The notes under the pieces were generated by a model. The model worked only from the letters and a program-made list of their open reading frames with translations. It was not told where the DNA came from and searched no databases. The position numbers were made by a program, and so were the translations under genes. Below, in pieces: positions 7,149-63,768 of a DNA stretch of 64,000 bases. Position 1 is the stretch's first letter, and every line of letters begins with the position of its first letter. Source of the DNA: Antedon bifida (taxonomy: Eukaryota; Echinodermata; Crinoidea; Comatulida; Antedonidae); the NCBI GenBank assembly GCA_963402885.1, contig OY727098.1:15982717-16046716 (forward strand). Direction: 5' to 3'.

Positions 7149-8078
7149 TTAGCAGAAACTCACGGGTTGAATAACATTTCCATGTTTTATTGTTTGAACA
7201 TCACAATGAATTTTTTGTGTTCTGGTGTCGAGGATGTATAGATTTTCTTCTAGTGGTATTGCTAAGTAACCGTCTAATAAACCGTCGCTAACAACTTTTC
7301 GATTATGCTCGTTATGTGGCCAGTCATTTGCATTTATTGGTTTCCCATTGACTGTGATTACTTTAAGACCCCCTGTTTTTAGATCGACAAATAAAGCTTC
7401 AATATCTTCTCGTGGACTTAAAAGCATGTCATACGAATCCCGTGTTACAGACGGGAAAAATGCTACATCGCTGATAATGATATTTGCACGAATTTCAAAG
7501 TGTTGTTCAATCTTTCCGAAATCAGAAACAGTCTGAACAAAAACAGCGCCTTTTTTGTAATCGATACTAACAAGAAATTCTCCATTTGGTGATATTTTGG
7601 GAACACCATGAATATTTTCATTTACTGAGACAACTGTTTCTGTAATATAATCAATTATTATCTGCTTTCCCGTTTCAGAATTTCCACAGTTAACGACAAG
7701 ATATCCGCCAAATGATACGTATGCAAGCGAATCGGGAACACAGCCATGACTCACAAGTTCTAAGGTACTAACTTTCTTCATAGATTTCAAATCTATCTTA
7801 TCCAAGCCCAATTCCTTATCATGGTGAGCAAACCCATACTCAAAGTACCCCTGTCCAGGGATTTGTTCAGGAGGGATATAAAGGCTTCGGACACTATCGT
7901 AATGATGATTTGATGGCTCCATGTGAATTGGATGATGGGCCTGGAATTTACTTGCGTCTGGTATGATTTGAACTATACGAGCATTTGGTTGGTCATCTTT
8001 TTCCCAATTTACAATCCATACTTGGTCTAAATGCTCCACGTACTGTAGCGATACAGGTCCCGATTTCATCTCTATATA
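7149..8078 (-). CDS. FSTL4/5: FSTL4/5-like, terminal exon (C-terminal domain)
   Basis: 310 codons including TAA; minus-strand acceptor ttttattacag at 8079-8080. Encodes about 309 residues rich in beta-strand-like repeats (SLQYVEHLDQVWIVNWEKDD near the start), as in the large uncharacterised C-terminal half of FSTL4/5, which looks propeller-like. Ends QPVSFC. Confidence 0.9.
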   Translation of the reverse strand, partial: YIEMKSGPVSLQYVEHLDQVWIVNWEKDDQPNARIVQIIPDASKFQAHHPIHMEPSNHHYDSVRSLYIPPEQIPGQGYFEYGFAHHDKELGLDKIDLKSMKKVSTLELVSHGCVPDSLAYVSFGGYLVVNCGNSETGKQIIIDYITETVVSVNENIHGVPKISPNGEFLVSIDYKKGAVFVQTVSDFGKIEQHFEIRANIIISDVAFFPSVTRDSYDMLLSPREDIEALFVDLKTGGLKVITVNGKPINANDWPHNEHNRKVVSDGLLDGYLAIPLEENLYILDTRTQKIHCDVQTIKHGNVIQPVSFC

Positions 8079-18616: not shown

Positions 18617-19214
18617 TTAAGAGATAGAATTCTATATTTGTGCTTATTATTCGAATATTCTCCGTACAATCCACCAGAATATAAAACCACATTGAAATCA
18701 TCTAAAATTGATTTCCACAGAAATAAAAGCAGGTAAATATAATGTATTATAAATCTGACGTATTAGAATATCTTTCGGCTATAGTTCAATATTTAATGAC
18801 ACATTTTGCATAATCCTATACTCTATTGTAATGGTGTAGTGTTGATAATGGTTTAAACATGGCAGTCAAAATTCATAAGTCTAACTGTGGATAGAAAGAA
18901 CATACGCAGTATATATATTCATGGTATGAACACTGAGGTAAATAACACATGTTATGCCTCCGTGTATCAGCCTCACTCCCAGTCTCATTACAAAGATAGA
19001 TACATAAAAAGATAAATATTTACTTTTAATTCCTGTGATAATAACATTTACACATGCAATTCTTTTCGTATTGATTTCTGTATCCTGAACCACCCTTCTC
19101 TAGTGCTTACGGTCTTCCTGAACGATTATCGGTGTAACGGTACCGAGTCAGCGATTTTTCTGACGGTATTCTTGAATTAACGTGATACAATATCCCTGAA
19201 TCAACGTTTTTGTT

Positions 19215-19680
19215 TCGGTATTTCTTCGGTATTCCAGTTAACGTTCCACTCTTCGGTATTCCAGTTAACGTTCAACTCTTTCGGTATTCCAGTTAACGTT
19301 CAACTCTTCGATATTCCAGTTAACGTGCAACTCTTCAGTATTCCAGTGAACGTTCAACTCTTCGGAATTCCAGTTAACGTTCAACTCTTCGGTATTCCAG
19401 TTAACGTTCAACTCTTCGGTATTCCAGTTAACGTTCAACTCTTCGGTATTCCAGTGAACGTTCAACTCTTCGGTATTCCAGTTAACGTTCAACTCTTCGG
19501 TATTCCAGTTAACGTTCAACTCTTCGGTATTCCAGTTAACGTTCAACTCTTCGGTATTCCAGTTAACGTTCAACTCTTCGGTATTCCAGTGAACGTTCAA
19601 CTCTTCGGTATTCCAGTTAACGTTCAACTCTTCGGTATTCCAGTGAACGTTCAACTCTTCGGAATTCCAGTTAACGTTTA
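19215..19680. repeat. 27-bp minisatellite, about 17 units
   Basis: Tandem units of ttcggtattccagttaacgt plus tcaactc (27 bp), with variants gtgaacg for gttaacg and ggaattc for ggtattc. Because 27 is a multiple of three, both strands stay open and give spurious 9-residue repeat proteins. Flanks at 19100-19210 and 19681-19790 hold looser relatives (gtgcttacggtattc). Confidence 0.95.
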
Positions 19681-21149
19681 ATGCTTACGGTTCTTAAAGA
19701 ACGTTTAGTGCTTACGGTATTCTTAAAGAACGATCAGTGCTTATACGGTATTCCTGAATAATCTACGTTTTTTGCTTATTAGGAATTCCTGAACCACCGC
19801 TGTGTGCTTGTCTATTATCTCTGAACTGTATTCTACTGTCAACCACAGCAAATCTCAATGATCTATCACAAACCTACAAGCCCTGCAGCAGCGATTGGCA
19901 GAACACAATCAGTTCGTTTCAAGTGCTTTGAAAGAGTTTCTTTTGTGCCAGATGAAATGGAGTTTTGTTGTTGAACAACACACTTCATTAGACGATTACA
20001 ATGCCATGTACAGGTAGCTAACGATAACAACATACAGAAGAAAATGATGCGATTACACTTTCATAAAGGTGTTTAGAAATCAGAACAGCAGTCGGTAAAC
20101 TAACAAACAACCTGTGTTCTTCGGTTACTCAAGTCTCAATACTGAAAACTGAATTCTACCGAATAACTTGGATTCAATACAATAGGCCTACTTGTATTGA
20201 AAAAATCTAAAGCGCAATTATAGATGTTAAATTAAGATTACCGATTTGAATCAAATTCATCAAACAATTTGTTATGTGTTTAGTCAAATTACACCACATC
20301 CGTCGAAGCAGCTACATCTGTTCAAATAATACATTTCAAAATCCTATTTATTTTTATACTTAAAAGTACAATATGCGCTAGGCCAGTTTTCCGAAACCAA
20401 CTTCCGAATCGAGTTTACCAAACACGTTGTGTGTCAGAGTAAGCATTTGCCACTGGATTCTTGTATGGTAGGCCTATCATTTCCCACTAGATTCTTATTA
20501 TTGTATTATGTCGAGCGACAAAAAAGACAGTCCCAGTATCATGACTGTTGACGACCACCTTTTCTCACGTTTTTTTAGACCGAGTCTTTATGGTTCCAAT
20601 AGGAGGGGAATCCTATCAGCATCAAATAATAATCTGAAAACAATTTGGGGTAGAGGGAATGGATCACATCACATACAAAAATATTAATATAATAAACGAT
20701 ACCATATTATATGTATTATCTCAATATGCTCAATGTTATATGTTATGTAAATGTTGAATCTCTATCTTTCAAAAATGACAACTACGTTACCAGTACAGAT
20801 TAGAAATTCAATATTACATTTGAATAGTTGAACATATTTAAACTATTTTTAGACTATATATCAAATTCTGAAGATATGTTCACATAATGTAGCATTAGAC
20901 CTCATAAAATGTCGCTGGAGAGATGATGAAATATTTGCGCAGATGACAGCCGATATAAATTGCGAAGATGCAATAAAAGTTAAACTGTGTAAGACTATTA
21001 AACTAGAATACCTATACAGCTCTATATATTTAATAAATTACAAAAATGAGAAGAAAAGAGCATTAAGATGTTTATGATATAAGCAAAAACTGAATCATGC
21101 ATATAAATGCATAAATGTATTGCCTTCTTCATATATATATTTAAAAAGA

Positions 21150-33305: not shown

Positions 33306-35313
33306 TCAAAATGTTATTGTCTGAAATTATTCTGTGGGACTAGACTCAATTTGAATTAATTTTTCTTTTACTAATGATACTGTACAGTTACTTAAATTGT
33401 GTTTATATTACGCACTTTACTTCAATAGATTACAGATATAGACACTACAGCAGCACATTCATTAACGCTAAATCTTGAAACGCAATTTATTTAATCAGGT
33501 TACACGCAACCCAGAATCTAGAAATTACAATGACCTTTTGACGATTAATTCGAAACAGGATTTTTGTTTTCTTTACTTATTGATGATGACAATGAAAATA
33601 ATATTAACACACACAGTACAATACATTCTGTACTGTATGAAAAGCGTAGTTAAACACATCGGTAGTGATACAGTACATAATGATACATAAAAATGTAATT
33701 TTTAAAGTTTAGTAGTCAATGGAAAATTAATATTACAATATTTGTTGTGTTTCTTTTATAAGTTGCTTATTTGATTTAAAAACTCCCATTACTGATTACA
33801 TTGGTTGTAAATTAGATATTGAACCATTATCCGATTTGCATCCGGCATGTAGTCCATTCATTTATTCAATACAAAAATGAAAATACTGTATTTTATAATA
33901 TAATGATAATACGGTGTACCCACTTCTGTGTTGGGCCATTGGACGATGGTTTACTCTTGGGCTATTTGCCAAATGTTTAAAAATAAATAAAAATTGGAAA
34001 AATTCAAATCGCATAATAAAATTTCAATTCATTTGCATAACACACTTTAAGGGTGCAATGAAGTACAGTATTTTCTTTAATATCATGTGACACACAATCC
34101 TCCAAACAAATGGCAAGAATCTACTTACTGTTGATGTGTTATATTTTTAGTAAATGATGTATAAATTGGAAAAATATACTGTGGAACATAATTTTAATTA
34201 TGAAAAAGGTAAAGACATTTAACTTGCCATCAATTGTAAATCTATAAATTTATGCTACAGAATTTTATTAATTAAATCTTAATAATAATTAATATAATTC
34301 TTATAATTAATAAAATATTGTTTATAATAAAAATTGTCATTGATAATGATAATAATTTGTAGTGGTTATGGTTGAGTGCTCATGGGGTCAATTTCTATAC
34401 TTGAGTTCACAATACAATGTAACTTTTTAATTGGTTAATACAGTCAGTGAATGGTGCTTACATTTTTTTGATGTCATCGCCATTTCCTTCCATTCTTTCC
34501 ATTGGGCACTATTGTGTTTTCTTTTTATTTGTGAGATTCGAGAAGACAAAATTGTAGCTAGAACTAAGTAATATCAATAAATTAAGGTTTTAATTAATCA
34601 GTAACAGATTTATGAAATAAGCAATAACATTTTTAATAGTATCGTCCCAACTTCCTTATTATTTTTGTAAAAAATTATATTTAATTTTGGCCATGTACTA
34701 TTATTAATAATACTAACTGTATTATAATGAAATGTAATGCATTTGTTTTGTTTATTGATTGTTCTGTAATTACTACTATAGATATTTCCTTCATTTTATC
34801 ATTTTAATTAACATTTACTAACCAATTTAATCGCAACACACAACACAGTGGCTTGTAAATTAACACTCTAAATGGGTGTACAAGCTATCATGTTTTAAAT
34901 ATAAATTATATTATATAGACCAGGGAGTTGATAATTACAACTCCCTGTTTAGACTAATGTTCATAGCGTGCTTTAACAAGCGGATTGTGATGCTAAATGT
35001 TGTACAATTACCAACATAATGTGCATTCATTATTTTGTTTCCCATGTGATTGTAGGCCTACTTTCCAGTACATTATTTTAATATAAAACATGCAACATTT
35101 TAGTAACTGTATATTAGGTTGCAATGTAATTTTTGCATTGGAAATTTGTTAACGCTTTTGAAAGAGCATGGGTACCCTCCCTCATCTAGGTGGATGTATA
35201 GAGACTACAGAGAAAAAACATGAAATTAGATGGAATGATATACTTTGCATGGAAAATATTTTCTGAAGATCTTTTTGTACATTTAATGAAAAAGACAAGT
35301 CTATATCGTGCCT

Positions 35314-35470
35314 GCTTACCTGGATAAACACGACATAAGCCCTTTTCCACGAAGTGCGAAACAATTACGAAAAGAAGAATTTAGCGGTAGCTCACCTCCG
35401 TGATAAATGGGACAGTCCGCTATAGCGCCCTCTAGTGGGACCACTCCCACGTAATACCGTCATCATTTCT
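35314..35470 (+). repeat. DIRS left inverted terminal repeat
   Basis: 157 bp beginning gcttacctggataaacacga and ending gtcatcatttct, identical to the reverse complement of 40584-40740. Outside it, 35299-35313 (gtctatatcgtgcct) is the unique left tip copied in the ICR. Confidence 0.95.
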
Positions 35471-35859
35471 TTTCGTATCGTCGTACTGACAACACGAAGT
35501 TTTTTCGAAGAGAAGATTTCGAATTCCAAGGAATTCTACAGACTCAAGCTAGCCGAGGCTAAGTTTATCTTTTCATTATTTGATACGTTGGAATACGTTG
35601 CCGTTGTTTGTTTAAACAAGGCTGAAATTTCGTTTCTTATCGTTTATTTTGAAATTTGATACGTTGCAAACCGTTGACTCGCCTAGCAAGCGAGTCAGAA
35701 ATAGCTTTAGAGTTCACCGGAGTTCACCGGCTGAGTGTAGGCAACGCAATACAATAGAATCAGTCAGGCGTATCGTAAACAACAAACCACTTACGCTAGG
35801 TTAAGAGACTGTTTGTTAGAGGGTATTGTGTGTCTGTTAGACAGGTGTTTGGCACCATC

Positions 35860-37311
35860 ATGCCTAAGCAAGAGTGTGTCCAGTGTAGGGGCCCGCGGTC
35901 GACGGTGAAGTGGGATCGCCACATGCGATGTATTAAGTGCCGTACGTGCAATCAGGATAACCCGTGTGACGTTTGTGTACGCTGGACTCCAGCCAAGTTT
36001 GCATCGCTTCCGCGGCCCGTGGAACGCACTGTTGAGGTCGGTGTTCCGGAGGAGACCGCGCCTGTGGCGGCTCCAGTGGTAACGCACGATGTCGTGCCAC
36101 GCGAGGAAGAGCCTGTGGCTTCCGTTCCACTTGCGAAGGAGGTTATTCTCGGCGCCGCGCCTGTTCCCGCTGCGGCCTCTGCGGTCCCGGACCCCAATGA
36201 GTTGTCTCCGGCGATTCTGCATGCCATTGCGGCGGCGGTTAGGGCATTACCAAGGGACGAGCCTGCGGTAGCCCCAGTTCAACGTCCTCCGATTCCGTAC
36301 TATCCGGTGCCCCCTCCTCAGACACCACTACCACCCTTTTCTGAGGGTGCTTCGATGGAAGACGGCTATTCATCTGATCGGACTATGGTCACGCTCTCGG
36401 ATGAGGAGAGAGCCGCGTCGCTTAGGGGGCCCGGCGAGGAGGGATTACAGGCGCTCGTGAACAGAGTTCTTCCGGCGGTACTGGCCTATCTTGGAATCGA
36501 CTACTCGCTCCGCGAGCCTAAGCCGACGCCTTCTACTAAGCGGTTTTCTACATTCGGCGTGCGTACGCCACTTAGAAAAAGCACTACCTGTCCGGTGGTG
36601 CCTCTCGACCCAGAACTGGTCGACCGTTTAGACACGTTTGCTCGCGATTCAACGACGACACGTAGAGCCGCACCGTACATCCTCTCGTCGGCTTTTCCGG
36701 TGCCGTCAGCACAATTTGATAAGTACATCATTGCACCGGGAGTGCCTGATGCAGCCAAAGACCGCGTCCGAGAGGACCAGGGCGTAGAGGCTGGCAAGAC
36801 CAACTACTTGGCTCCGAAGGCTGCTAAGACAGAAGAGACGCTTCTTGCAGTGGATAGAGCGGCCCGCGAGACGGTACGCGTCACGTCTATTTCGGGCTAT
36901 CTCTTGTCGTTCTTGGCTGACCCGGAACACCCTAGAGAGCGCGACGACGAGGTCATCGCCTTGCTGCAGCAAATAACTGGTCTTATCGCTGATCAGCAAG
37001 CATTTATATCTGTTACTTCGGCCGCTGCTCGCCGGGTCAACGTCCTCCAGGGGACAGATATCGCGCCAGCGCAATATCGTAGATTCACTACATCGGAATC
37101 TTTCGGCGCTAAAGATCTTTTCTTCGGGAGTTTCTCCCACAAGGAAGATAAGTGGGCGCGTGAGCGGGAGGCACGTCGTGAAACTCGATCGAGATTCCCG
37201 CAAAAACGTCGGGCTAGCCGTGGACGTTCGGGACCATCCAGACCGCCTCCCCCTCTTCCGGCTCCAGTACCGCCAACGCAACCGCCAGTACCGACACCGG
37301 CGCGTTCCTGA
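35860..37311 (+). CDS. DIRS ORF1, gag-like protein with N-terminal Cys/His cluster
   Basis: 483 residues from the first in-frame ATG; the frame also opens ten codons earlier without an ATG. Residues 6-39 hold C6, C9, H21, C24, C27, C30, C36 and C39, a zinc-binding-like cluster. The middle is Ala/Pro/Val-rich and probably disordered (about 60-170), residues 190-440 look globular, and the C-terminus is Arg-rich then Pro-rich (SGPSRPPPPLPAPVPP). Position before RT and the basic tail suggest a nucleic-acid-binding structural role; DIRS ORF1 proteins are poorly conserved, so that function is inferred. It stops 38 nt before the RT ORF. Confidence 0.85.
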   Translation: MPKQECVQCRGPRSTVKWDRHMRCIKCRTCNQDNPCDVCVRWTPAKFASLPRPVERTVEVGVPEETAPVAAPVVTHDVVPREEEPVASVPLAKEVILGAAPVPAAASAVPDPNELSPAILHAIAAAVRALPRDEPAVAPVQRPPIPYYPVPPPQTPLPPFSEGASMEDGYSSDRTMVTLSDEERAASLRGPGEEGLQALVNRVLPAVLAYLGIDYSLREPKPTPSTKRFSTFGVRTPLRKSTTCPVVPLDPELVDRLDTFARDSTTTRRAAPYILSSAFPVPSAQFDKYIIAPGVPDAAKDRVREDQGVEAGKTNYLAPKAAKTEETLLAVDRAARETVRVTSISGYLLSFLADPEHPRERDDEVIALLQQITGLIADQQAFISVTSAAARRVNVLQGTDIAPAQYRRFTTSESFGAKDLFFGSFSHKEDKWAREREARRETRSRFPQKRRASRGRSGPSRPPPPLPAPVPPTQPPVPTPARS

Positions 37312-37349
37312 TACGCAGGCTTCTACTTCTTCCCGCGTTCGCACCCCAT

Positions 37350-39464
37350 ATGACAACAACAGATATCCCCGACCTGCACGAGGCAGGCCCGGAAGATATG
37401 ACGCCAGCCATAAGAGCGGCAGGCGTCCGGGTGCGTTCGCGCGTCGCCGGTGACGCGATCGGTACGCCCGTCCCCTACATCGACGGGCAGGTGGGGGGTC
37501 ACCTAAGACGGTTCGCCCGAGTGTGGGAGACCCTGTCGGAGGACAGGTGGATTCTCGCCACCATAAAAAACGGCTACAGCATCGAATTTACGAGCCCCCC
37601 GGTGAGCGGGGGCGCTCGATCGACAAGAATACCGCCAGAGCCTCTAAAGAGATGTGCGCTTCTGGACGGCCTCAATTCTCTACTCCAGAAAGGAGCAGTA
37701 GAACCAGTCGACGAACGATGCGCCGTCTCGGGACACGAGTCGACCGTCTTCCTCACAGAAAAAAAGACAGGCGATTGGCGACCTATTTTAAACCTGAGGA
37801 GTCTAAACAAGCGGTTTATTCGGCCCCAAAGGTTTCGGATGGAGACAGTCTCATCCATCCTTCTGGGGCTAAGACGAGGAGACTGGGCAGCCTCGATAGA
37901 CCTGAAAGATGCGTACTTTCACGTTCCTATCGCAGAGGCAGATCGACGTTGGCTACGTTTCAGAATCCTCGACCAATTGTACCAATTCGTCGCTTTGCCG
38001 TTCGGCCTATCGACGGCTCCACGCGTGTTTACACGCATAGTCAGAACGCTGGCGTCGTTCTTCCACAAACATGGAATAAGAGTATTCATGTACCTCGACG
38101 ATTGGTTGGTCGTGGCCCAGTCCAAGGACAGGCTGATGAGCAGTCTACAATATGTCCTTCTCGTAACGGAACAGGCAGGTTTCATTGTCAATCGGGAGAA
38201 GTCGTGCCTGGTGCCGACACAATCCCCGTTATACCTCGGAGCACAGATAAATCTCGTGACGGGCTTGGCGTGTCCATCCCAACAACGCATCGCGTCTGCA
38301 ATGAGTGCAGAACGCAATCTAATATCTGCTCGTGCTCCGACGGCTTACGAATGGCTCAGAGCACTGGGTTGTCTGGCCAGCTTTGTTGCCTTAGTTCCGT
38401 ATTGCCGGCTACGTATGAGACCTTTACAGCTGCATCTGCTGGCTCATTACCGACCGCACATAGACTCCCTACACAAAGTGGTTCCGTCGAATGCATTCAT
38501 TCAGACGCATCTCGAATGGTGGCTGGTAGAAGGCAGGTTGACTGTGGGAATGCCAATTCAAAAATCTTTGCCGGACGTCCGTATAGAGACAGACGCATCC
38601 GAGACAGGCTGGGGCGGTTGCTCCAAGGCACTCCGCGCCTCCGGCCTTTGGACGGTCGAGGAGGCACGCTCCCACATCAACCTTCTAGAACTCTGGGCAG
38701 TCGACAGGACCTTGAAGGCCCTTCGACCTCACGTGACCGGTCGTCACGTCCTCATCCATTCCGACAACACAACAGTGGTAGCATATATAAATCGTCAGGG
38801 AGGCACGAGGTCACCGACGTTATGCTTCCACCTCTGGACACTGATGTTGTGGTGCATAGGCAACAACATCAGACTCTCGGCTGCCCACATTGCGGGCAGC
38901 CTCAACATTGTGGCGGACGCTCTGTCCCGACAAACACTTTGTCCCACGGAATGGCGCCTTCTACCCAGCATTGCCACACTGATATTCGACCACTTCGGGC
39001 GGCCTCATGTAGATCTGTTTGCGACGTCAGACAACACACAGCTCCCGACCTTCTGCACAAGGTTTCGGGATGCACGTGCGTGGGCGGTGGATGCCCTATC
39101 CATACCGTGGGACGGACTATGGGCTTATGCGTTTCCACCGATCTCACTTATACCAACTGTTCTGACGCACATTCAGCGCCATCCTTGCCGGGTCCTTCTG
39201 ATCGCCCCGGGCTGGGCTCGACAAGCATGGTATCCACTGCTTCTCGACCTGCTCTACGATCATCCCCTGCGTCTTCCAGTTCGAGAGGATCTGCTGACGC
39301 AGGACCGAGCTGTGTTCTCACTACAGAACCTACAATCCCTGCGCCTGACTGTATGGCCATTGTCAGGGATCAGCTCCGAGACTCAGGCATTCCAGATGGC
39401 CCTGCCGCCCTCGCGGCGAAATCTCGTCGGGAATCTACTCTTACCGTCTACAATAGCCGATTAA
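37350..39464 (+). CDS. DIRS reverse transcriptase / RNase H / methyltransferase-like polyprotein
   Basis: 704 residues. RT motifs: SIDLKDAYF with catalytic Asp184, LPFGLSTAP near 216, and YLDD at 248-251. RNase H acidic residues: ETDASETGWGG (D415), LLELWAV (E447), HSDNTTVVAYI (D472), HIAGSLNIVADALSR (D523). Residues 550-660 (HVDLFATSDN; DALSIPWDGLWAYAFPP) match the domain that follows RNase H in DIRS elements and has been described as DNA N6-adenine-methyltransferase-like. All key residues are present, so the enzyme looks intact. The frame overlaps the recombinase ORF at its 3' end. Confidence 0.95.
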   Translation: MTTTDIPDLHEAGPEDMTPAIRAAGVRVRSRVAGDAIGTPVPYIDGQVGGHLRRFARVWETLSEDRWILATIKNGYSIEFTSPPVSGGARSTRIPPEPLKRCALLDGLNSLLQKGAVEPVDERCAVSGHESTVFLTEKKTGDWRPILNLRSLNKRFIRPQRFRMETVSSILLGLRRGDWAASIDLKDAYFHVPIAEADRRWLRFRILDQLYQFVALPFGLSTAPRVFTRIVRTLASFFHKHGIRVFMYLDDWLVVAQSKDRLMSSLQYVLLVTEQAGFIVNREKSCLVPTQSPLYLGAQINLVTGLACPSQQRIASAMSAERNLISARAPTAYEWLRALGCLASFVALVPYCRLRMRPLQLHLLAHYRPHIDSLHKVVPSNAFIQTHLEWWLVEGRLTVGMPIQKSLPDVRIETDASETGWGGCSKALRASGLWTVEEARSHINLLELWAVDRTLKALRPHVTGRHVLIHSDNTTVVAYINRQGGTRSPTLCFHLWTLMLWCIGNNIRLSAAHIAGSLNIVADALSRQTLCPTEWRLLPSIATLIFDHFGRPHVDLFATSDNTQLPTFCTRFRDARAWAVDALSIPWDGLWAYAFPPISLIPTVLTHIQRHPCRVLLIAPGWARQAWYPLLLDLLYDHPLRLPVREDLLTQDRAVFSLQNLQSLRLTVWPLSGISSETQAFQMALPPSRRNLVGNLLLPSTIAD

Positions 39465-40381
39465 AGCATTTCTTTACATGGTGCAGGCGCCAACAAATAA
39501 CACCAGGGTTGGTTACCCTTGGTCAAGTATGTGCCTTCCTGCATTACCTATTTGAGTCAGGTCTTCAGGTCCGCACCATTTCAGGCTATAGGTCCGCCAT
39601 TGGGGCGGTGACACCAACACTTAAAGACGGTTCTACGATTTCGTCATCCTCCGTTATCACTCAGCTGATACGGGGGATGTTCAGACAACGACCTCCAGTC
39701 AAGGTCTTGATTCCTCGATGGGATGTCAACGTCGTTCTAGCCGCTCTTACACGCCCGCCATTTGAGCCTATGAGTAAGGCTTCTCTTTACAATCTCTCGC
39801 TGAAGACGGCGTTCCTGCTCGCATTGTCATCGTGCAAACGCCGAGGCGAGCTGCACGCTCTTACCTTAGAACCAGGGCATGTGAGGTTCGAGCGAGGCGG
39901 CGTGAGGCTAGTGTTTAGGAAAGATTTCCTAGCAAAGACTCAGACGTTGAAATATTCGCCGCCGGCTGTGTTCGTCCCCACCATCACATCTTACTCGGCG
40001 GTTGACGGAGACAAACTTTGGTGCCCAGTGAGGGCCCTCAAGTGGTATATCCACCGCACAAAGACAATTAGAGACGGAGTGTCTCACCTATTTGTCACCT
40101 CTGTTCCACCACACCGCGCCGCCGCTAAATCGACCATAGCGAGGTGGGTCGTATCTACAATTCAAAACGCTTACACGTCATCGGACACACCGCCGCCGGC
40201 ACACATGCATCAATTGCGCGCGGTTGCCACTTCGTGGGCGTTGTTCGCGGGTGTCCCTGTAGCTGACATTATGGAAGCGGCATGGTGGCGAACACAGTCT
40301 ACATTCACCTCTTACTATCTTTCGGATGTGTCCGCTAACCTAGCTCCAGTGGCGACAGCAGTGCTGAAGCCTCGTCTATAG
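39353..40381 (+). CDS. DIRS tyrosine recombinase (integrase)
   Basis: 342 residues from ATG 39353, overlapping the RT ORF by 112 nt in another frame. An N-terminal SAM-like region (about 25-115; LTVYNSRLKHFFTWCRR) precedes the catalytic domain, with Arg in SSCKRRGELHAL (163/164), HxxR at H286-R289 (HQLR), a following WW pair (311-312) and candidate nucleophile Tyr321/322 (TSYYLSDV). This R-H-R-Y set is expected for DIRS recombinases that integrate circular DNA. The same frame stays open upstream to 37523; the ATG was chosen because conserved recombinase sequence starts just after it, and a longer product cannot be excluded. Confidence 0.9.
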   Translation: MAIVRDQLRDSGIPDGPAALAAKSRRESTLTVYNSRLKHFFTWCRRQQITPGLVTLGQVCAFLHYLFESGLQVRTISGYRSAIGAVTPTLKDGSTISSSSVITQLIRGMFRQRPPVKVLIPRWDVNVVLAALTRPPFEPMSKASLYNLSLKTAFLLALSSCKRRGELHALTLEPGHVRFERGGVRLVFRKDFLAKTQTLKYSPPAVFVPTITSYSAVDGDKLWCPVRALKWYIHRTKTIRDGVSHLFVTSVPPHRAAAKSTIARWVVSTIQNAYTSSDTPPPAHMHQLRAVATSWALFAGVPVADIMEAAWWRTQSTFTSYYLSDVSANLAPVATAVLKPRL

Positions 40382-40453
40382 GTATGTACTGGTAAAATCT
40401 TTGTTTTCTTGTCACCCACCGCCGACTAGATATCTAGTCCGGTGCTACACTGG

Positions 40454-40549
40454 CTTATGTCGTGTTTATCCAGGTAAGCAGGCACGATATAGACTACACA
40501 AACCAGAAATGGTGTTGGTAGTCTATGAGTGCCGCTTACCTGGATAAAC
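40454..40549 (+). repeat. DIRS internal complementary region (ICR)
   Basis: 40454-40495 is complementary to the left outer end (35299-35340) and 40493-40549 to the right outer end (about 40724-40779), joined at agactacacaaacc. The two ends are thus copied head to tail, as needed for templated circularisation in the DIRS1 model. The join defines the tips of the element: left gtctatatcg, right tttgtgta. Confidence 0.9.
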
Positions 40550-40583
40550 GCCCGCCCGCCGTCCCCTCAGACAAGAGGTCTTG

Positions 40584-40740
40584 AGAAATGATGACGGTAT
40601 TACGTGGGAGTGGTCCCACTAGAGGGCGCTATAGCGGACTGTCCCATTTATCACGGAGGTGAGCTACCGCTAAATTCTTCTTTTCGTAATTGTTTCGCAC
40701 TTCGTGGAAAAGGGCTTATGTCGTGTTTATCCAGGTAAGC
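40584..40740 (-). repeat. DIRS right inverted terminal repeat
   Basis: 157 bp, reverse complement of the left repeat without a visible mismatch, followed by a unique right tip (40741-40779, ggcactcatagactaccaac...). Confidence 0.95.
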
Positions 40741-42358
40741 GGCACTCATAGACTACCAACACCATTTCTGGTTTGTGTATTTTTCTACATGTTATACTTA
40801 CTATACAATTTACAATGATTCACAAGAACTCCAAACTTAAAACAAATGAATCAACCATAGAATTACCAGTATGAAGTCTACTCATTGCCATTACTGCAAA
40901 TACTCTATCTGTGTACACGTACGTACGGTATCCTGACATTTTCCGTAACCCTTGGAAAACCATTTAGTGTTGCATGAAAAATTCCAGATTGCTTTTTCTG
41001 AATTTTTGATTATGATTTTTAGTGTTCCAATTATACAGTAATTGTAATAAATAAATGTAGTATGATTGATGCAAACTGTACAAAAAAAAAATTAAAATTG
41101 CAGTATATTTATTTAATTCAGCAACATTTACCACAAGTTGACTGCATGCTTGAAGCCAATATTAATAAACTTCCAGTAAATTCTGTAATATAGCTAATTA
41201 CCTCTCCATACAACTCAAGTTTCATTGACGACGGTAAAAAAACATCTTCATTTTATGATTAATGTCAGTTTGCTAAATTCAGGAACGCTATAATAAGCGG
41301 GAAAGATGTATAGTTTTGAGTGAATTTGATTGGCTATTGAGAACTATCATACTTCGAACGATGATGGTTGATACTTGATATCCAGTTAATTTATCGACAT
41401 TATGTGCGATTTTTCATCACTTATGGTTTTTACTCTTTTTAAAATCTAATTGCGTACAGAATGTGTAGGTATTGGTTACATGGATTTTTAGTCGTGATTG
41501 TAGAGTTTCCATTCCCACATAAATTATTACAGATTTTGAGAATTTTTTTTGTACTATACTTTGCTGTAGTGTTCAATCAATTTTAGTAAATTAATTAATA
41601 TAAATATAGTACAACAGTTCTCAAATAATTAATCTGAAAATATTTTATGTGAGTGAAAGTAAAAAATAGACTGTTCCCAATTAAGTGTAAGCCTATTTTT
41701 TTACTTGATAATATGCGTGTGGCCTCGTTATGAAAATGCGCTAATTCTGTATGCGCCATCTAAGGCGAAACCGGACCGAGTGTGAAATACACTTTAAACT
41801 TTTACTTTGTAAACTGTCATTTTATAAATACCTCAAAATATTTGTATTCAATTCTGTTCTGATGAACATATTAAAACATAACACAACATGATGTGTCATA
41901 TTTATGTAGTGAAATATGCCTTGCAGTATATTATATGATACACAACTACCTCATGTGAAGTGTTTTCTATATATAGCATCTAACTCAACTGGTTATTGAA
42001 CGTCATTCACTTCCTACTCTTAACCCATCGAAACAGAAACATACTGTATAAATGTAACTGTAAAATACAACATTGTAAGTAAACAAATACTGTATTACTA
42101 CGGAAATGCTGTACATGGTATTATATTTTACTTTTAGCCGGTATGAATTTTAAAATCTGTATGTAATAATTTCATTAAATTTTCATTTGCCAATGTAGAG
42201 TAGCAAATTGCTACACACACTCAACTTCCCTACACATTATTAATTAACAATTGATATGAATAGCAAAACTGTAGAATACTATGTTTTCTAAACTCAGATT
42301 CAGATTAATTATCCTATCAAACTTTCCAAATGAACATTTGCACAGAATGAAATTGATA

Positions 42359-60200: not shown

Positions 60201-63200
60201 TGCTAAGTGTGCTTGCAATATTTGTTCAACCGAAGGATCAACTGTTCCTCTCACTCGTGTAAAATGTCTTGTCTCAATGACGACGCCACGCGATGTGCGT
60301 TTGAATAGTTCGTCTGTTACTCCTGCTTTCGTTGAGTTTGATATGAGTGCAAAAGGTTATGGCTGTTTGTATTTGCCAAGCATCTCGCCTCAAGCAACAC
60401 CGACACAAGGGGTAGTAGGAGCTGTTGGAATAACAAGTGGATCTGATCCATCAATTATCAGCGGAGTGGGTTCTGGTTAGTACATGAATATTTTTTGTCT
60501 TTAGGTAAAAAAGGTGAGTCCTGTGTTCATTATGAACGTAGGGGAATGAGCTATTTGGAGCTCATTGTACTAAGCCTCAACATTATGTGGTAGGGTGGCC
60601 AGTTTCCATGCCGCCTATGACAGTCAAGTGTCCTAACTACTCGGCTACCAAACTCCATTATCATCATGTCTTTAGGTATTTAAAACAAAAGTCTTATTCA
60701 ATTAAAGTTTATTAAAAAGTACAGTTTGTTTTCTACATTTTTTCCTATATGCTTGTAAACTTTGTCCCATCGAAGTAGTAACTTTTTTATTCTTCCATGA
60801 TTGTCCTTTAGGAATAATTTATTTTTTATATCTGAATCACAGTGTTTTGTTTTTCGGAGAAAATTAAAGTGTTAACTGTTACTAAACTTTTTGCTGCATC
60901 CCTGCTAATATATGTTAATTTTAAAATTATTAAAAAGTCTTGCTTTTTTATTAGGTGAAAGACCATTTCCACCTCAGTCTGGTCTCACTTACTCTGTATG
61001 GTTCTGTGTTGATCGGTATGGTACCGCAGATTTTGACAACCACCAAACTCGACTCCTGACACTTGTGCGTAATGTTGTGGGTACCGAACACAACTATGTA
61101 TGTCTGTCCATCAACATAACTGCTCATGATCGGTTTCTGGTAATCAGTAGTTTGGAGAGGCCGTTCTCAAAAGCTGTAGCAGATGAGGCGTCCAGCAATG
61201 ATTATACTGTCAAGGTGTGGTGTCCCGAACTTTCCCAGGAAGGTCAATGGCACCATCTTGTTGTGGTCTTAAACAGAGCAGTTATGAAAAGTAGTTCGGT
61301 TTCCATTTATGTTGATGGGGTCTCTCGACACACTCAGAGGGTAATATTTTCAGATTATTTATTTATATGTGGTGAACAATATAGACAATGAGGCATTTAA
61401 TTAATGATTATTTTTATGATATAAATATTTATTAATTATTATTAGTTTCAATACAAATATTGAACAGTGTAACATTGCTCCAATGAAACAAAATTTTCCA
61501 ATTAATTTGTTCTTGTATCATGCATTTATTTATCAACTTATTGAATAGATACGGAAAACATGTTATTCTATGTCAAAATGAAAATCTTTTATATTATATA
61601 AATATTGATTTAACAATCATTTGTACGGTTTATTTATGATTCCCTTTTTAATAATTGGAAAATTATGTTTTATTTAGATGCATTATATCCAGCCAGTTCC
61701 AGGTGGCAATGCTAATAATCCAGGTGGTCTAGTCTCAATGTATGCATTCATTGGTACTCCTATCTCCTATCAAAGTTCATCACGTTTACTATGGAGGCTA
61801 GGCCCTGCTCATTTGTTTGAGGATGCTATGAATGGTGCCACTATTGCAGCTGTTTACAACCTTGGCCCTACATATGTTGGCAGCTTTCAAGCACCCAAGT
61901 CAGAAGGTAACATCAATTGATCATACTTCTACATATTTTATGAAACTGTTTTATATTAGTTAACAACCATGCAAAGTTTTGAGTGAATTTCATACAATTT
62001 TTTTTCTTCAGATTTTCAGCATACAACAAAATATTTAAACAAATAAACAAACAGTGAGTTGATATTTGAATTGCCCCGTGTGGGATGATTGAAGAATTTT
62101 GAATTGAATTTGAATTGAATTGAATTGAATTGATATTAGACCTGTGTACTTTCCATACAAACCCTCCACATGATAGTTACTTATGAACTCAAGACATACT
62201 GTACCATTATATTCTTCACATATAAACATAACATTGACACTGCAATAGGTGTAATTGCTATAGCAGCCATTTTAGGACAAAAACTTGAAGACATTGTCTG
62301 ATATAAAACATTTTTTCTTTTAGCCATCTTATCTCGTAATGATTTGTACAACCTCCAAATAGCTGAAGAACGGATTATATTTGGCATCCACGCACACGCA
62401 CTGAGCACACTCACAATCTCAAAGATTAGAAAGATATTCAATAAAGTTGACAGTAAAACAATCTCTAAGCAATTGTCATTGTCATCACATGACAATGCTA
62501 CACCAATCAGAATCTTACACAACTCAGCTGGACACCTAACTGGGCCTGGCCGTTCATTAGGGGCAGTTCTGTTTGGAAATATGGGTAGGTATTTCTTTCT
62601 AAATGTCACTGTATTAGGTTGTTAGTGATAAGAGTGATTAACTTTATCATTACGTAATGCTGTTTTTTAAAATTATTCATAAGTTAACACCAGTGTATCT
62701 TTACTCCTTGTTTAATTTTTCTGACAATATTGAAGTTTATAACTTGCGTAACATCCGAAATATAATAATTCCATTTTGTAAGACCACATCATATCGTTTA
62801 TCTTTTGTCCCATCTATTATAACACATTGGAACGAGTTAAATAATGAAATAAAAAATTCCTCATCTCTTGTTGAGTTTAAAAATTTGCTACTGAAAACCA
62901 ATTTGTTTAAACAAAAAAACATTCTTATTATGATACAGGTGATAAGAAGATTAACCAAATTCACACTAGAATCCGACTTGGTTTCAGCTGTCTCAATTCG
63001 CATTTATTCTTACATGGACTTGGGGACAATCCAAATTGTACTTGTGGCTTTAATGTTGAGAATCCGCTTCATTTCTTATGTTACTGCCCTAATTATAATA
63101 CACAAAGAGATATTCTACTTGTAAGCGCTAACTCAATTATTGAGAATATCTTAGCCAAGGATTTTTCTTTAGCGTATAATTTGAAATTTTTAAGTGAAAT

Positions 63201-63768
63201 TTTTATTTTTGGTTCAGATCTTCTTTCGAATTGTGAAAATGCTTTATTGTTTTTATTATGTACAATAATTTCTTGTTAATTCTGGAAGATTTGATTGATG
63301 TTTCTGTTTTTTGTTTTAAAATATTGTATTTTTTAATCTGAGGCGCCTTGAAGCTAAGGTGGTTCCATCTTGTAAGGCGCCTCTGTGTAATATACTGAAT
63401 AAAAAAAAAAAAAAAAAAAAAAATCATCATATGAGCAAAATATGAATTTCAATAGGATCAAAAGGGTGTTTCTAACTCTGATTGATTTACATATAATCAT
63501 GGAGCATCTTCCTTCAATATATTATACTATATTATGTATTTAATAATACTAATACTTTCTATCAATATTTTAAACAGGTATTAGAACATTCTGTCCAAAA
63601 CCAGTGGCCAGTACACTTGAAAATGTAGGTGGGTCTGCTTGTCTGTTAGGGCTTGTTGCCATGGCTACAGATGTTGAAGGTCTGTATGCAGCAGTGAAAG
63701 CACTAGTGTGTGTTGTCAAGAACAACGGACCAGCCATGCAGGAGATGGAACGGACACACGGTTACCAA
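43183..63768 (+). CDS. WDFY3: WDFY3 (ALFY) BEACH-family autophagy scaffold, N-terminal 1,484 residues
   Basis: Twenty-one coding exons with consistent GT/AG sites and phases join to 4,452 nt (1,484 codons) and continue beyond the window: 43183-43368, 43928-44051, 46050-46345, 50618-50810, 52052-52238, 52580-52802, 53240-53484, 54716-54888, 55264-55365, 55682-55875, 56140-56278, 56991-57091, 57544-57701, 58245-58331, 58793-59111, 59558-59772, 60033-60475, 60955-61340, 61678-61906, 62324-62584, 63578-63768. Near-identical blocks to vertebrate WDFY3, from memory, include STLVKCLYLFFDLP, CPPHNLPWRK and NGDDDMGTLLALMHSAP. This part is a helical-repeat region (1-980) followed by a concanavalin-like domain (about 1128-1340). 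PH-BEACH, WD40 and FYVE domains would be encoded downstream. ALFY scaffolds selective autophagy of protein aggregates. The orthologue may be the single WDFY3/4 (blue cheese-like) gene. Confidence 0.95.
43802..43862 (+). repeat. tRNA-derived SINE (family 1)
   Basis: tgcttggtggttaacatgtt (box A) followed by aagttcaaaacc (degraded box B); same head as the copies at 3425, 4010 and 49613. WDFY3 intron 1. Confidence 0.5.
43928..44051 (+). CDS. WDFY3: WDFY3 coding exon 2
   Basis: 124 nt; acceptor ttatgttgcag, donor CCAG|gtattg. Encodes DKFGDVHPFTGHISRLFVTE and VRRRASN, aligned with WDFY3 from memory. Leaves one base of a split Glu codon. Confidence 0.92.
45178..45218. repeat. TAA microsatellite
   Basis: About 13 uninterrupted TAA triplets in WDFY3 intron 2 (44052-46049). 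Apart from this and AT-rich DNA I see nothing in that intron. Confidence 0.95.
46050..46345 (+). CDS. WDFY3: WDFY3 coding exon 3
   Basis: 296 nt; acceptor ctaattttag, donor CAG|gtaaag. Encodes SRGWMLLRTLTLLSSGGQ and STLVKCLYLFFDLP; a Lys/Glu-rich insert (EKEEKAVEQKDGQ) is less conserved. Confidence 0.94.
46496..46548. repeat. Perfect inverted repeat, 19-bp arms
   Basis: Left arm aacgtaacaatcaaccact (46496-46514) and its exact reverse complement at 46530-46548 with a 15-base loop. It could be the core of a tiny MITE. Confidence 0.85.
48585..48692 (-). repeat. tRNA-derived SINE (family 3)
   Basis: Minus strand: GTGGCGCAGTGTGTTGGACG (box A region), GGTTCGAACCC (near-perfect box B), then a CCTTAGGCAAGACACTTTAC-type block that recurs at the 3' part of many animal SINEs. 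Not a functional tRNA. Confidence 0.65.
48830..48976. mobile_element. TWA-target MITE, copy 4 (best preserved)
   Basis: 147 bp with 24-bp terminal inverted repeats (agctttgtctacactatcaa... / ...ttgatagtgtagacagagct) and a TTA target duplication on both sides. Internal repeats gatgtgcccaaatatggtag occur twice. Confidence 0.88.
49437..49590. mobile_element. TWA-target MITE, copy 5
   Basis: 154 bp; left end agctttgtctatattatcaa, right end tttgatagtgtagacagagct, flanked by TAA and TTA. It runs in the opposite internal orientation to copy 4. Confidence 0.82.
49613..49677 (-). repeat. tRNA-derived SINE fragment (family 1)
   Basis: Minus strand GTAGCTTGGTGGTTAATGTG followed by a box-B remnant (atccagggttca). 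It starts 23 bp after MITE copy 5. Confidence 0.5.
50618..50810 (+). CDS. WDFY3: WDFY3 coding exon 4
   Basis: 193 nt; acceptor ttttacag, donor CACA|gtaagt. Encodes LLFSAITSCCPPHNLPWRK, one of the most conserved WDFY3 blocks. Confidence 0.94.
50811..52051. other. WDFY3 intron 4
   Basis: 1.2 kb AT-rich intron with donor gtaagt and acceptor attgcaatag. I see no repeat family or exon in it. Confidence 0.85.
52052..52238 (+). CDS. WDFY3: WDFY3 coding exon 5
   Basis: 187 nt; acceptor tattgcaatag, donor TTAG|gtaagt. Encodes ELSPLDMVEMCFTVFHFLKD and LLDDFRTCQGYIFLADFVL. Confidence 0.94.
52420..52488. repeat. 69-bp near-perfect palindrome
   Basis: 34-bp arms (52420-52453, 52455-52488) starting aagcatggtat, separated by one base, with two mismatches. 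It lies in WDFY3 intron 5 and would extrude as a long hairpin. Confidence 0.88.
52580..52802 (+). CDS. WDFY3: WDFY3 coding exon 6
   Basis: 223 nt; acceptor cttttttcag, donor AAA|gtaagt. Encodes EALRNLVFLISSLSLCG and SVRNLQSFQVLQTVFLK. Confidence 0.94.
53240..53484 (+). CDS. WDFY3: WDFY3 coding exon 7
   Basis: 245 nt; acceptor tatatttag, donor AAGA|gtaagt. Encodes DPANYFILEPQHTLSQFIDR and LEFVVFNLNFVPCKELISV. Confidence 0.95.
53515..54005. mobile_element. pogo/Tigger-like MITE with TA target duplication
   Basis: 491 bp with terminal inverted repeats cagtagaaccttcattttac / gtaaaacaaaggttctactg, directly flanked by TA on both sides. No transposase frame. The termini resemble Tc1/mariner-superfamily pogo elements. 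WDFY3 intron 7. Confidence 0.8.
54633..54756 (+). repeat. 62-bp tandem duplication over the exon 8 acceptor
   Basis: Units 54633-54694 and 54695-54756 are identical except at one base: the splice acceptor reads AT (54652-54653) in the upstream unit and AG (54714-54715) in the downstream one. Each unit holds a T9 tract, the acceptor and the first 41 bases of exon 8. Confidence 0.93.
54716..54888 (+). CDS. WDFY3: WDFY3 coding exon 8
   Basis: 173 nt; acceptor tttgtatacag, donor ATCT|gtgagt. Encodes CSIIATRYLLKILRHSAIYQ and VYREVGILEVMVKCL. Its first 41 bases are duplicated upstream (54633-54756); the downstream copy is used because it has the only AG. Confidence 0.93.
55264..55365 (+). CDS. WDFY3: WDFY3 coding exon 9
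   Basis: 102 nt; acceptor gttgatttag, donor GCCA|gtgagt. Encodes ETLAFLMMEALTLLLNNNTK. Confidence 0.9.
55682..55875 (+). CDS. WDFY3: WDFY3 coding exon 10
   Basis: 194 nt; acceptor aacctgtttag, donor AAGA|gtgagt. Encodes FGECGGARRVHNLVPYLQCR and NGDDDMGTLLALMHSAP, strongly conserved. Confidence 0.95.
56140..56278 (+). CDS. WDFY3: WDFY3 coding exon 11
   Basis: 139 nt; acceptor ttgttttcag, donor TCAG|gtaaaa. Encodes LLFVLRDSHKARIAFRKVGG and FVYVMSVLVSMEG. Confidence 0.94.
56279..56990. other. WDFY3 intron 11
   Basis: 0.7 kb AT-rich intron; I see no repeat family or exon in it. Confidence 0.85.
56991..57091 (+). CDS. WDFY3: WDFY3 coding exon 12
   Basis: 101 nt; acceptor gtttatatag, donor GAG|gtgaga. 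Encodes VFQTISAAMRQEPANAKFF. Confidence 0.92.
57467..57488. repeat. Poly-C tract
   Basis: A run of about ten C followed by TCCCCCTCCC in WDFY3 intron 12. Prone to slippage and sequencing error. Confidence 0.8.
57544..57701 (+). CDS. WDFY3: WDFY3 coding exon 13
   Basis: 158 nt; acceptor tctaatttcag, donor ATGG|gtaaga. Encodes DSLKDAIRLLGCFSKG, then a Ser/Pro linker. Confidence 0.92.
57905..57990 (+). repeat. 3' tail of a SINE/LINE with TATTATT terminus
   Basis: tgtaaagcacctttaaacat, then tagaaaggcgctactgtata and taaatgtggtattattatta. It pairs GTAAAGCNCCTTT with AGAAAGGCGCT and ends in ATT triplets, as in the copies at 2219 and 59420. Confidence 0.55.
58245..58331 (+). CDS. WDFY3: WDFY3 coding exon 14
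   Basis: 87 nt; acceptor cttttgacag, donor AAAG|gtacac. Encodes CLLLRCLYDLAVDAYE, matching the conserved helix before the Ser/Pro linker. Confidence 0.9.
58793..59111 (+). CDS. WDFY3: WDFY3 coding exon 15 (Ser/Pro linker)
   Basis: 319 nt; acceptor tttccatag, donor AAG|gtatgc. Largely disordered, rich in Ser and Pro (FTPLPTPPNSPSRSPELR), then PTIVHPGAVISLLDLLPAI rejoins the conserved solenoid. Confidence 0.9.
59420..59470 (-). repeat. 3' tail of a SINE/LINE (TAATAAT start on plus strand)
   Basis: Seven TAA-type triplets followed by ttaggcttgtatagcgcatt, the reverse complement of the family tail seen at 57905. WDFY3 intron 15. Confidence 0.5.
59558..59772 (+). CDS. WDFY3: WDFY3 coding exon 16
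   Basis: 215 nt; acceptor gattatatag, donor TACG|gtaaaa. Encodes SERNQQVMCEAGLPQRLL and LERLASQSLEPKDLR. Confidence 0.94.
60033..60475 (+). CDS. WDFY3: WDFY3 coding exon 17
   Basis: 443 nt; acceptor tctactttag, donor TCTG|gttagt. Encodes LRLGSPLNCKTWD, a variable Asn/Ser stretch, then GSTVPLTRVKCLVSMTTPRD and SSVTPAFVEFDMSAKGYGCL. The GTTAGT donor is non-consensus but keeps phase. Confidence 0.93.
60515..60657 (-). repeat. tRNA-derived SINE (family 2)
   Basis: Minus strand starts GGTAGCCGAGTAGTTAGGAC, a Ser/Leu-tRNA-like head, and continues to a body shared with 21150-21240 (on the plus strand, gctcattgtactaagcctca). WDFY3 intron 17. Confidence 0.6.
60955..61340 (+). CDS. WDFY3: WDFY3 coding exon 18 (concanavalin-like domain)
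   Basis: 386 nt; acceptor tttttattag, donor AGG|gtaata. Encodes GLTYSVWFCVDRYG and EGQWHHLVVVLNRAVMKSSS plus YVDGVSR, the classic W..HLVVV and IDG motifs of the lectin-like fold. Confidence 0.94.
61678..61906 (+). CDS. WDFY3: WDFY3 coding exon 19 (concanavalin-like domain)
   Basis: 229 nt; acceptor tttatttag, donor GAAG|gtaaca. Encodes SMYAFIGTPISYQSSSRLLW and YNLGPTYVGSFQAPKSE. Confidence 0.94.
62040..62135 (+). repeat. Non-LTR retrotransposon 3' tail with TTGAA repeats
   Basis: attgccccgtgtgggatgat, then repeated TTGAA units. This is a common 3' terminus of LINEs with short tandem tails. WDFY3 intron 19. Confidence 0.5.
62324..62584 (+). CDS. WDFY3: WDFY3 coding exon 20
   Basis: 261 nt; acceptor ttcttttag, donor ATGG|gtaggt. 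Encodes FGIHAHALSTLTISKIRK and DNATPIRILHNSAGHLTGPG. Confidence 0.94.
62640..63423 (+). mobile_element. 5'-truncated non-LTR retrotransposon with poly-A tail
   Basis: Codes for the region after the reverse transcriptase of a LINE: KIIHKLTPVYLYSL, YNLRNIRNIIIPFCKTTSYR, ITHWNELNNEIKNSSSL, then after a frameshift near 62935 IHTRIRLGFSCLNSHLFLHG and a CTC..HFLCYCP zinc-knuckle-like motif. A 3' UTR hairpin (gaggcgcct ... aggcgcctc, 63340-63382) is followed by about 23 A. The rest of the 5' part is missing. It lies in WDFY3 intron 20, same orientation as the gene. Confidence 0.82.
63578..63768 (+). CDS. WDFY3: WDFY3 coding exon 21 (last in window)
   Basis: 191 nt; acceptor ttttaaacag, donor CAA|gtaagt. 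Encodes LLGLVAMATDVEGLYAAVKA and LVCVVKNNGPAMQEMERTHG. The gene continues to the right with the PH-BEACH, WD40 and FYVE parts expected. Confidence 0.95.

What the first reader, a model, noticed from the sequence alone, without database searches (positions are those of the whole stretch)
35299..40779. Apparently intact DIRS-type retrotransposon upstream of WDFY3
The 157-bp inverted terminal repeats match at every base I compared, all three ORFs are open, and catalytic residues of RT (YLDD), RNase H and recombinase (R, HxxR, Y) are present. Most genomic DIRS copies are broken; this one could still be mobile or have inserted very recently.
Basis: partly seen in the sequence, partly recalled or inferred. 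Interest (0 to 1): 0.8.

Follow-up and report, generated by a model that had tools for sequence, protein, structure and literature searches.

The report
Echinoderm DIRS retrotransposon with recoding junction
The window carries a young DIRS-type jumping gene of a known kind; its relatives in the same genome suggest that such elements make their recombinase by reading through a leaky stop codon, which would explain why two of their genes lie on top of each other.

Summary
Confirmed: a DIRS1-like retrotransposon at 35299-40779 (5481 bp), 2.4 kb before WDFY3's first recognised coding exon. Its 157-bp inverted repeats match at every base, both internal complementary regions are perfect, and there is no target duplication. 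A sister copy on another chromosome is 99.3% identical, with coding differences mostly synonymous, so the copy is young.

"Intact" is only partly right: relative to the sister copy and to families B, E and F, this copy's GAG leaves its frame near the 3' end and stops about 47 codons early.

The unexpected result concerns expression. In five divergent DIRS families of this genome (A, B, E, F, G) the recombinase (YR) frame is almost free of stops through about 1.9 kb of pol, where reshuffling synonymous pol codons gives 13-20 stops on average. Its amino acids are poorly conserved (49%, A against B). In A (sister copy), B, E and F it follows GAG in the same frame across a single UGA, with a hairpin 9-12 nt downstream; G is similar (15 nt). 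Pol lies in the +1 frame. I infer UGA readthrough to a GAG-YR fusion and a +1 shift to pol; nothing here measures expression.

Family C, without long ORFs, has also spread recently.

Class: new member of a known kind.

The parts
35299..40779 (+). DIRS1-like retrotransposon, whole element (family A)
   Evidence: ends defined by the internal complementary regions and shared with the sister copy
35299..35470 (+). left inverted terminal repeat: 15 nt divergent outer part, then 157 nt conserved part (35314-35470)
   Evidence: 157/157 with 40584-40740
35860..37311 (+). GAG ORF as it stands in this copy; leaves the family frame near its 3' end and stops about 47 codons early
   Evidence: no Pfam match; gag A/B omega 0.14
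37350..39464 (+). pol ORF: reverse transcriptase (YLDD), RNase H, C-terminal region that corresponds in place to the DIRS methyltransferase-like domain
   Evidence: C-terminal region without profile match
37451..37453 (+). UGA that in the sister copy ends GAG and is followed in frame by the YR frame
37466..37488 (+). predicted hairpin beginning 12 nt after the UGA (7 bp stem)
   Evidence: same sequence in the sister copy; rank test
37454..39352 (+). stop-free extension of the YR frame, overlapping pol (633 codons)
39353..40381 (+). tyrosine recombinase core
   Evidence: weak Pfam matches; invariant R, HxxR, Y in five families
40452..40495 (+). left internal complementary region, reverse complement of 35298-35341 (44/44)
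40495..40549 (+). right internal complementary region, reverse complement of 40725-40779 (55/55)
40584..40779 (+). right inverted terminal repeat with outer right extension (about 26 nt)

Best explanation
The feature is a recently inserted copy of a DIRS1-like tyrosine-recombinase retrotransposon (family A) in an echinoderm-like genome that holds at least five related DIRS families. Shown: anatomy of termini and internal complementary regions, other copies, low divergence, purifying selection on GAG, pol and YR, insertion without target duplication, preference for ATTT on the right flank, and selection that keeps the YR frame free of stops through pol. Inferred from established DIRS models: the RNA is copied, the internal complementary regions template the ends so that a circle forms, and the recombinase inserts the circle. 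Inferred here: ribosomes that finish GAG meet a UGA followed by a hairpin; most stop, some read through and continue in frame for about 975 codons to give a GAG-YR fusion, and some enter the +1 frame at or near the same UGA to give pol. The middle of the fusion is overprinted on pol, so only stops are strongly selected against there. In the window copy GAG is out of that frame near its end, so this copy would be expected to make neither fusion from GAG in the family's way.
For: Element. Youth: 157/157 ITR; sister copy 34 substitutions and 6 gap columns in 5486, synonymous:non-synonymous 12:3 in gag, 7:4 in pol, 4:1 in YR against about 28% synonymous expected by chance; flanks unrelated. Stop-free frame: tested over 636-667 pol codons with 0-2 stops in A, B, E, F, G against permuted means 13.2-19.7, 0 of 3000 permutations as low in each; the third frame shows no deficit (A and B also, 5000 permutations). 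Third-base T before AA/AG/GA is 0 of 45 (A) and 0 of 42 (B) against 35 of 98 and 34 of 95 before other A/G, while gag and YR core show no such deficit; E 1 of 38, F 0 of 47, G 2 of 35. From the UGA to the first in-frame ATG, pooled over five families (602 codons): 0:37 against 27:74, p 1.4e-4; in E that ATG comes only at codon 354. YR core starts with Leu, not Met, in F and G. Junction: 24 of 37 sequences examined have one stop in that frame and it is UGA at the homologous place. Hairpin 9-16 nt after the UGA: as stable elsewhere in the same element at only 1.8% (A), 0.16% (B), 0 of 3269 (E), 0 of 3179 (F), 1.9% (G) of positions; starts 12, 12, 11, 9, 15 nt after the UGA. Pol of B opens 8 nt before the UGA, and B and E have no Met before the conserved GGRL motif.
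Against: No transcript, ribosome or protein data. Hairpin: the search window was chosen after seeing the hairpins; shuffled z-scores of the 60 nt are unremarkable in A (0.2), B (-0.9) and G (-0.9) and only E (-2.0) and F (-4.4) stand out; GC-matched ranks are weak for A (0.14) and G (0.06), combined p 2e-4 with overlapping windows. Of 37 junctions, 13 do not show the clean pattern: 3 of family G have the UGA plus further stops (L052, L074, L081), 3 have no stop (L062, L076, L077), 5 are relics, 2 (family H) gave no match. L052, the G representative, has a second stop 177 nt after the UGA. The five families are related, so they are not five independent origins. Family A has Met codons in the pol frame before the conserved motif, and so does G, so pol could start there. 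Four-fold sites in the overlap are slightly more conserved than in gag and YR (p 0.012), so the extension may carry some amino-acid constraint.
Confidence: 0.68

Rival explanations
1. YR is translated from its own AUG near the start of the core (re-initiation or leaky scanning), and the long open frame over pol has no role.
For: A, B and the E representative L048 have Met at the start of the YR core; internal initiation is common in compact elements (recalled).
Against: F and G have Leu there. The overlap is stop-free far beyond chance in all five families and all three thirds of the extension, which this does not predict; relic families C and D have 12, 18 and 3 stops in the matched pol stretches of L014, L025 and L029.
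Confidence: 0.12
2. Non-AUG initiation just after GAG, or re-initiation, rather than readthrough, opens the YR frame.
For: Would also demand a stop-free extension; the UGA and hairpin could serve re-initiation.
Against: Does not by itself explain why GAG and YR share one frame in A (sister copy), B, E and F, or why the stop is UGA in each family.
Confidence: 0.12
3. Spliced mRNAs express YR and pol separately.
For: Not testable here; no RNA data.
Against: Removing the pol part by splicing would leave no reason to keep the YR frame open there.
Confidence: 0.06
4. The open overlap is a by-product of base composition or codon usage.
For: The elements are G+C-rich.
Against: The permutations keep the protein and the exact codon counts; the avoidance is limited to the three contexts that make stops in one frame; the H element shows 65 stops where 60.2 are expected. 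H is less G+C-rich by eye, so it is not a composition-matched control.
Confidence: 0.02

Closest known systems
DIRS1-like retrotransposons (DIRS superfamily; Piednoel 2011, PMC3266345)
   Same: GAG, pol with RT and RNase H, YR; inverted terminal repeats with a divergent outer part, right extension, two internal complementary regions of 40-60 nt, no target duplication, long overlap of the YR ORF with pol (found in half of 28 elements there).
   Different: The two internal complementary regions here abut with at most one shared base instead of a 3-bp circular junction, and the element's two ends share no trinucleotide; target-like ATTT lies outside the right end. GAG-UGA-YR in one frame and the hairpin are not mentioned in the sections and passages of that paper that I read.
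DIRS elements of sea urchins (Strongylocentrotus, Lytechinus, Arbacia; listed in Table 1 of PMC3266345)
   Same: Echinoderm-type host; same superfamily.
   Different: No sequence comparison was possible with the collections at hand.
Gammaretroviral gag-pol readthrough and antizyme-type +1 frameshifting at UGA (recalled)
   Same: What the junction is proposed to work like: leaky stop plus 3' structure; +1 shift at a UGA.
   Different: Here readthrough would lead to the recombinase and the shift to pol; not a relative.
SIRE, the truncated partner of VIPER in trypanosomes (PMC6681497, passage)
   Same: A non-autonomous derivative of a YR retrotransposon, as family C here.
   Different: SIRE is a short terminal-sequence element; family C keeps about 5.4 kb with decayed coding regions.

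Membership tests
DIRS1-like retrotransposons | Reverse transcriptase with YLDD and RNase H | tested here: met
   RVT_1 E 4e-23 over cut-off; RNase H E 7e-5 under cut-off in the window, RVT_3 over cut-off in family E
DIRS1-like retrotransposons | Tyrosine recombinase with R, HxxR, Y | tested here: met
   Pfam integrase domains weak, N-terminal SAM domain over cut-off in B, E, F; R163, H286, R289, Y322 invariant in five families; no PDB sequence match; fold model too poor to use
DIRS1-like retrotransposons | Inverted terminal repeats | tested here: met
   157/157
DIRS1-like retrotransposons | Left and right internal complementary regions matching the element's own ends | tested here: met
   44/44 and 55/55; lICR perfect in 18 of 19 copies and rICR in 19 of 19; in 5 of 6 family representatives own termini match own ICR exactly although the left ends differ between families
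DIRS1-like retrotransposons | 3-bp circular junction shared by both ends | tested here: not met
   ICRs overlap by 1 nt at most; left end GTC, right end GTA in the 17 copies printed. Published elements vary here (2-bp junctions and unequal ends in Table 3 of PMC3266345), so I do not treat it as excluding membership
DIRS1-like retrotransposons | No target-site duplication | tested here: met
   no flanking direct repeat of 3 or more bases in 16 of 16 copies tested; one copy has 2
DIRS1-like retrotransposons | Methyltransferase-like domain after RNase H | tested here: inconclusive
   conserved C-terminal pol region in five families but no Pfam or NCBIfam match and an unusable fold model
PAT-like and Ngaro elements | Split direct repeats | tested here: not met
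   terminal repeats are inverted
Programmed stop-codon readthrough | Measured readthrough product | not testable with these tools
   sequence evidence only

The most novel reading that the evidence does not exclude
One leaky UGA at the end of GAG is a three-way switch: termination gives GAG, readthrough gives a GAG-YR fusion of about 1,500 residues whose middle 630 codons are overprinted on pol and selected chiefly to lack stops, and a +1 shift at the same UGA gives pol. This would explain the long ORF overlap seen in about half of described DIRS1-like elements.
Probability: 0.42. Interest if true: 0.7.

Novelty: new member of a known kind. Interest (0 to 1): 0.48.

Why it matters
DIRS elements have been known since the 1980s, but in the papers and passages I could read the large overlap of their YR and pol genes is described and not explained. 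If the frame is kept open because ribosomes come through it from GAG, the overlap becomes a testable expression strategy, comparable to gag-pol recoding in retroviruses but delivering the recombinase. The same genome also offers related families of graded age and a multi-copy family with decayed genes and perfect termini, which separates what is needed in cis (termini and internal complementary regions) from what can be supplied in trans.

Tried and rejected
Host guess: I first guessed an ascidian (Styela) from genome size and contig number. Mitochondrial genes lie on both strands and COX1, CYTB and ND5 score best under code 9, that of echinoderms and flatworms (COX1 492 against 486 and 488 bits), so that guess was dropped; a feather star (11 large contigs) is recalled only, and two paper searches found nothing.

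Family E was first taken for a pol-less family from L030 alone; one search shows copies with intact RT frames, and only L030 is a deletion derivative. As a result the four left-end stretches fetched for E were misplaced and unused, and the four left ends sought for family D were not located, so the left-flank preference (A at -8 and -1) has no validation set.

First count of synonymous changes for YR used a wrong frame and was redone. Structure prediction gave unusable models (pLDDT 43 and 37). A relative search in viral contigs found none (28 pattern matches, none confirmed). L050, a G copy, was rearranged and uninformative. An alignment of the junctions put family G out of register, so no covariation count was made.

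Considered and rejected: assembly duplication (flanks unrelated); age from ITR identity alone (used only together with the sister copy).

Full report
What is there. The element spans 35299-40779. Its conserved inverted repeat is 157/157, and two adjoining internal stretches are perfect reverse complements of its own ends: 44/44 for the left end and 55/55 for the right. Pfam finds the reverse transcriptase clearly and RNase H and integrase domains weakly. The recombinase core has R163, H286-x-x-R289 and Y322 invariant in five families. By the terms of Piednoel 2011 (PMC3266345; I read the abstract, sections 3, 9 and 10 and search passages) this is a DIRS1-like element: divergent outer ITR of about 15 nt, conserved ITR of 157, right extension of about 26 nt, internal complementary regions of 43-55 nt and a long ORF overlap. 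One listed feature is absent: the two complementary regions share at most one base, not a 3-bp circular junction, and left and right ends are GTC and GTA in the 17 copies printed.

Where it is. The genome held has 315.6 Mb in 27 contigs; the 11 contigs whose lengths I saw printed at 19 Mb or more add up to about 314.7 Mb. Mitochondrial COX1, CYTB and ND5 score best under code 9, so the host is probably an echinoderm.

How young. A full copy on C1 differs by 34 substitutions and 6 gap columns in 5486 (99.27% by blastn), with unrelated flanks. Both copies have the same perfect ITR. The coding differences are 23 synonymous to 8 non-synonymous in gag, pol and YR, where about 28% synonymous is expected, so most of the divergence built up while the genes were under selection. 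Against family B, omega is 0.14 in gag, 0.18 in pol and 0.10 in YR.

The neighbours. Family B has six full copies, 0-12 substitutions apart, with gag, pol and YR frames open. Family C has eight full copies examined, 0-58 substitutions apart, two of them (L014, L020) identical over 5396 bp with unrelated flanks; none has an ORF of 250 codons or more, yet lICR and rICR are perfect in all eight and their rICR and right end equal those of B. I take C to be mobilised in trans, probably by B. The phrase 'non-autonomous DIRS' or 'nonautonomous DIRS' is in no paper of the open library, which is not proof of novelty; SIRE is a known partner of VIPER (PMC6681497, passage). Copy searches scored only the best candidates (40 of 202, 40 of 430, 150 of 750), so all counts are lower bounds.

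Termini. Across 19 copies the left ICR is perfect in 18 and the right in 19. In five of six representatives (A, B, C, D, E) the ICR equals the copy's own ends at 43/43 and 55/55, although left ends differ between these families by 1-16 of 43; the exception, L012, a 1064-bp deletion derivative, has 5 mismatches on the left. ICR and ends thus change together, as the templating model requires. The ITR itself is free of mismatches and gaps in 14 of 19. No copy of 16 has a flanking direct repeat of 3 bases or more. Right flanks favour T at +2 to +4 (16, 15 and 15 of 19); eight further right flanks give 21 of 24 (p 2e-7).

The GAG end of this copy. In the sister copy GAG runs 551 codons to a UGA and the YR frame follows in the same frame; B, E and F have the same layout. 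In the window copy GAG is shifted near its 3' end and stops at 37309-37311, about 47 codons early. The window copy is therefore not an intact representative of its family, unless the assembly is wrong there.

The overlap. In A, B, E, F and G, 636-667 pol codons were tested. The YR frame has 0-2 stops there; in A, B and E the single one is the GAG-end UGA itself, in F there is none, and in G there are the UGA and one more. Permuting synonymous codons gives 13.2-19.7 on average and never as few in 3000 trials each. The other frame shows no deficit. The mechanism of avoidance is visible: a third-base T never precedes AA, AG or GA in A (0 of 45) or B (0 of 42), against about 36% before other A/G, and gag and YR core show nothing of the kind. 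Controls: the H element (39% identical RT) has 65 stops where 60.2 are expected; decayed C and D copies have 12, 18 and 3 stops in matched pol stretches, while the deletion copy L030 has none in its 111 codons. The extension's amino acids are 49% identical between A and B against 76% for pol, though slightly raised conservation at four-fold sites (p 0.012) leaves room for some constraint.

Why I think of readthrough. The frame is open right from the UGA: pooled over five families, the 602 codons between the UGA and the first in-frame ATG show 0:37 in stop contexts against 27:74 (p 1.4e-4), and in E that ATG comes only at codon 354. The YR core begins with Leu in F and G. Of 37 junctions examined, 24 have exactly one stop in this frame, UGA, in the homologous place (A 2 including the window, B 2, E 7, F 10, G 3); 3 of family G have it with further stops; 3 have no stop; 5 are relics; 2 of family H gave no match. 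Contexts are CGG UGA CGN in A, B and E, CGA or CGT UGA UGC in F, AAG UGA CAU in G. A hairpin follows at 12, 12, 11, 9 and 15 nt with different stem sequences, ranking among the most stable 2% of positions in each element, but shuffled z-scores are notable only in E and F and the window was chosen after seeing it. Pol is always +1 to GAG in the family representatives; in B its frame opens only 8 nt before the UGA, and B and E have no Met before the conserved GGRL motif, so pol must be entered by a shift or a non-AUG start there. A and G do have such a Met.

What is in print. Passages of PMC3266345, PMC2685390, PMC6681497 and PMC3783388 on overlap, frameshift, splicing and translation give no account of how YR is expressed. 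Searches for DIRS with readthrough, gag and tyrosine recombinase and for DIRS with overlapping, frameshifting, tyrosine recombinase and stop codon each returned one paper; from the listing both looked off-topic, and neither was opened. Subscription papers were not searchable.

Verdict. A real, young DIRS1-like element; a new member of a known kind. The copy is less intact than claimed. The lasting interest is the junction and the overlap, which give a testable account of DIRS gene expression.

Noticed in passing
L014, L015, L020, L021, L023, L024, L025, L028 (family C): Eight near-identical full-length DIRS copies with no ORF of 250 codons or more but perfect internal complementary regions; apparently amplified in trans.
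   Followed up: partly
L076, L077: Two copies of a G-like type in which the GAG and YR frames run together without any stop in the 451 nt read, apparently because the UGA region is missing.
   Followed up: partly
L012 and L026: A 1064-bp internal-deletion derivative with both ends, and a rearranged or nested pair of DIRS copies.
   Followed up: partly
flanks of 19 copies: A at -8 (16 of 19) and -1 (14 of 19), T at +2 to +4: a loose palindrome-like target preference; only the right side was validated.
   Followed up: partly
window 19181-19684: Tandem repeat open on both strands (repeated FGIPVNVQL on one strand), seen in the ORF list.
   Followed up: no
window 62642-63279: ORF pieces that look like the C-terminal end of a LINE-type retrotransposon; judged by eye; the first piece had no Pfam match, the second was not searched.
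   Followed up: no
window 7149-8093, minus strand: ORF that resembles follistatin-related protein 5 by recall; no Pfam match.
   Followed up: no
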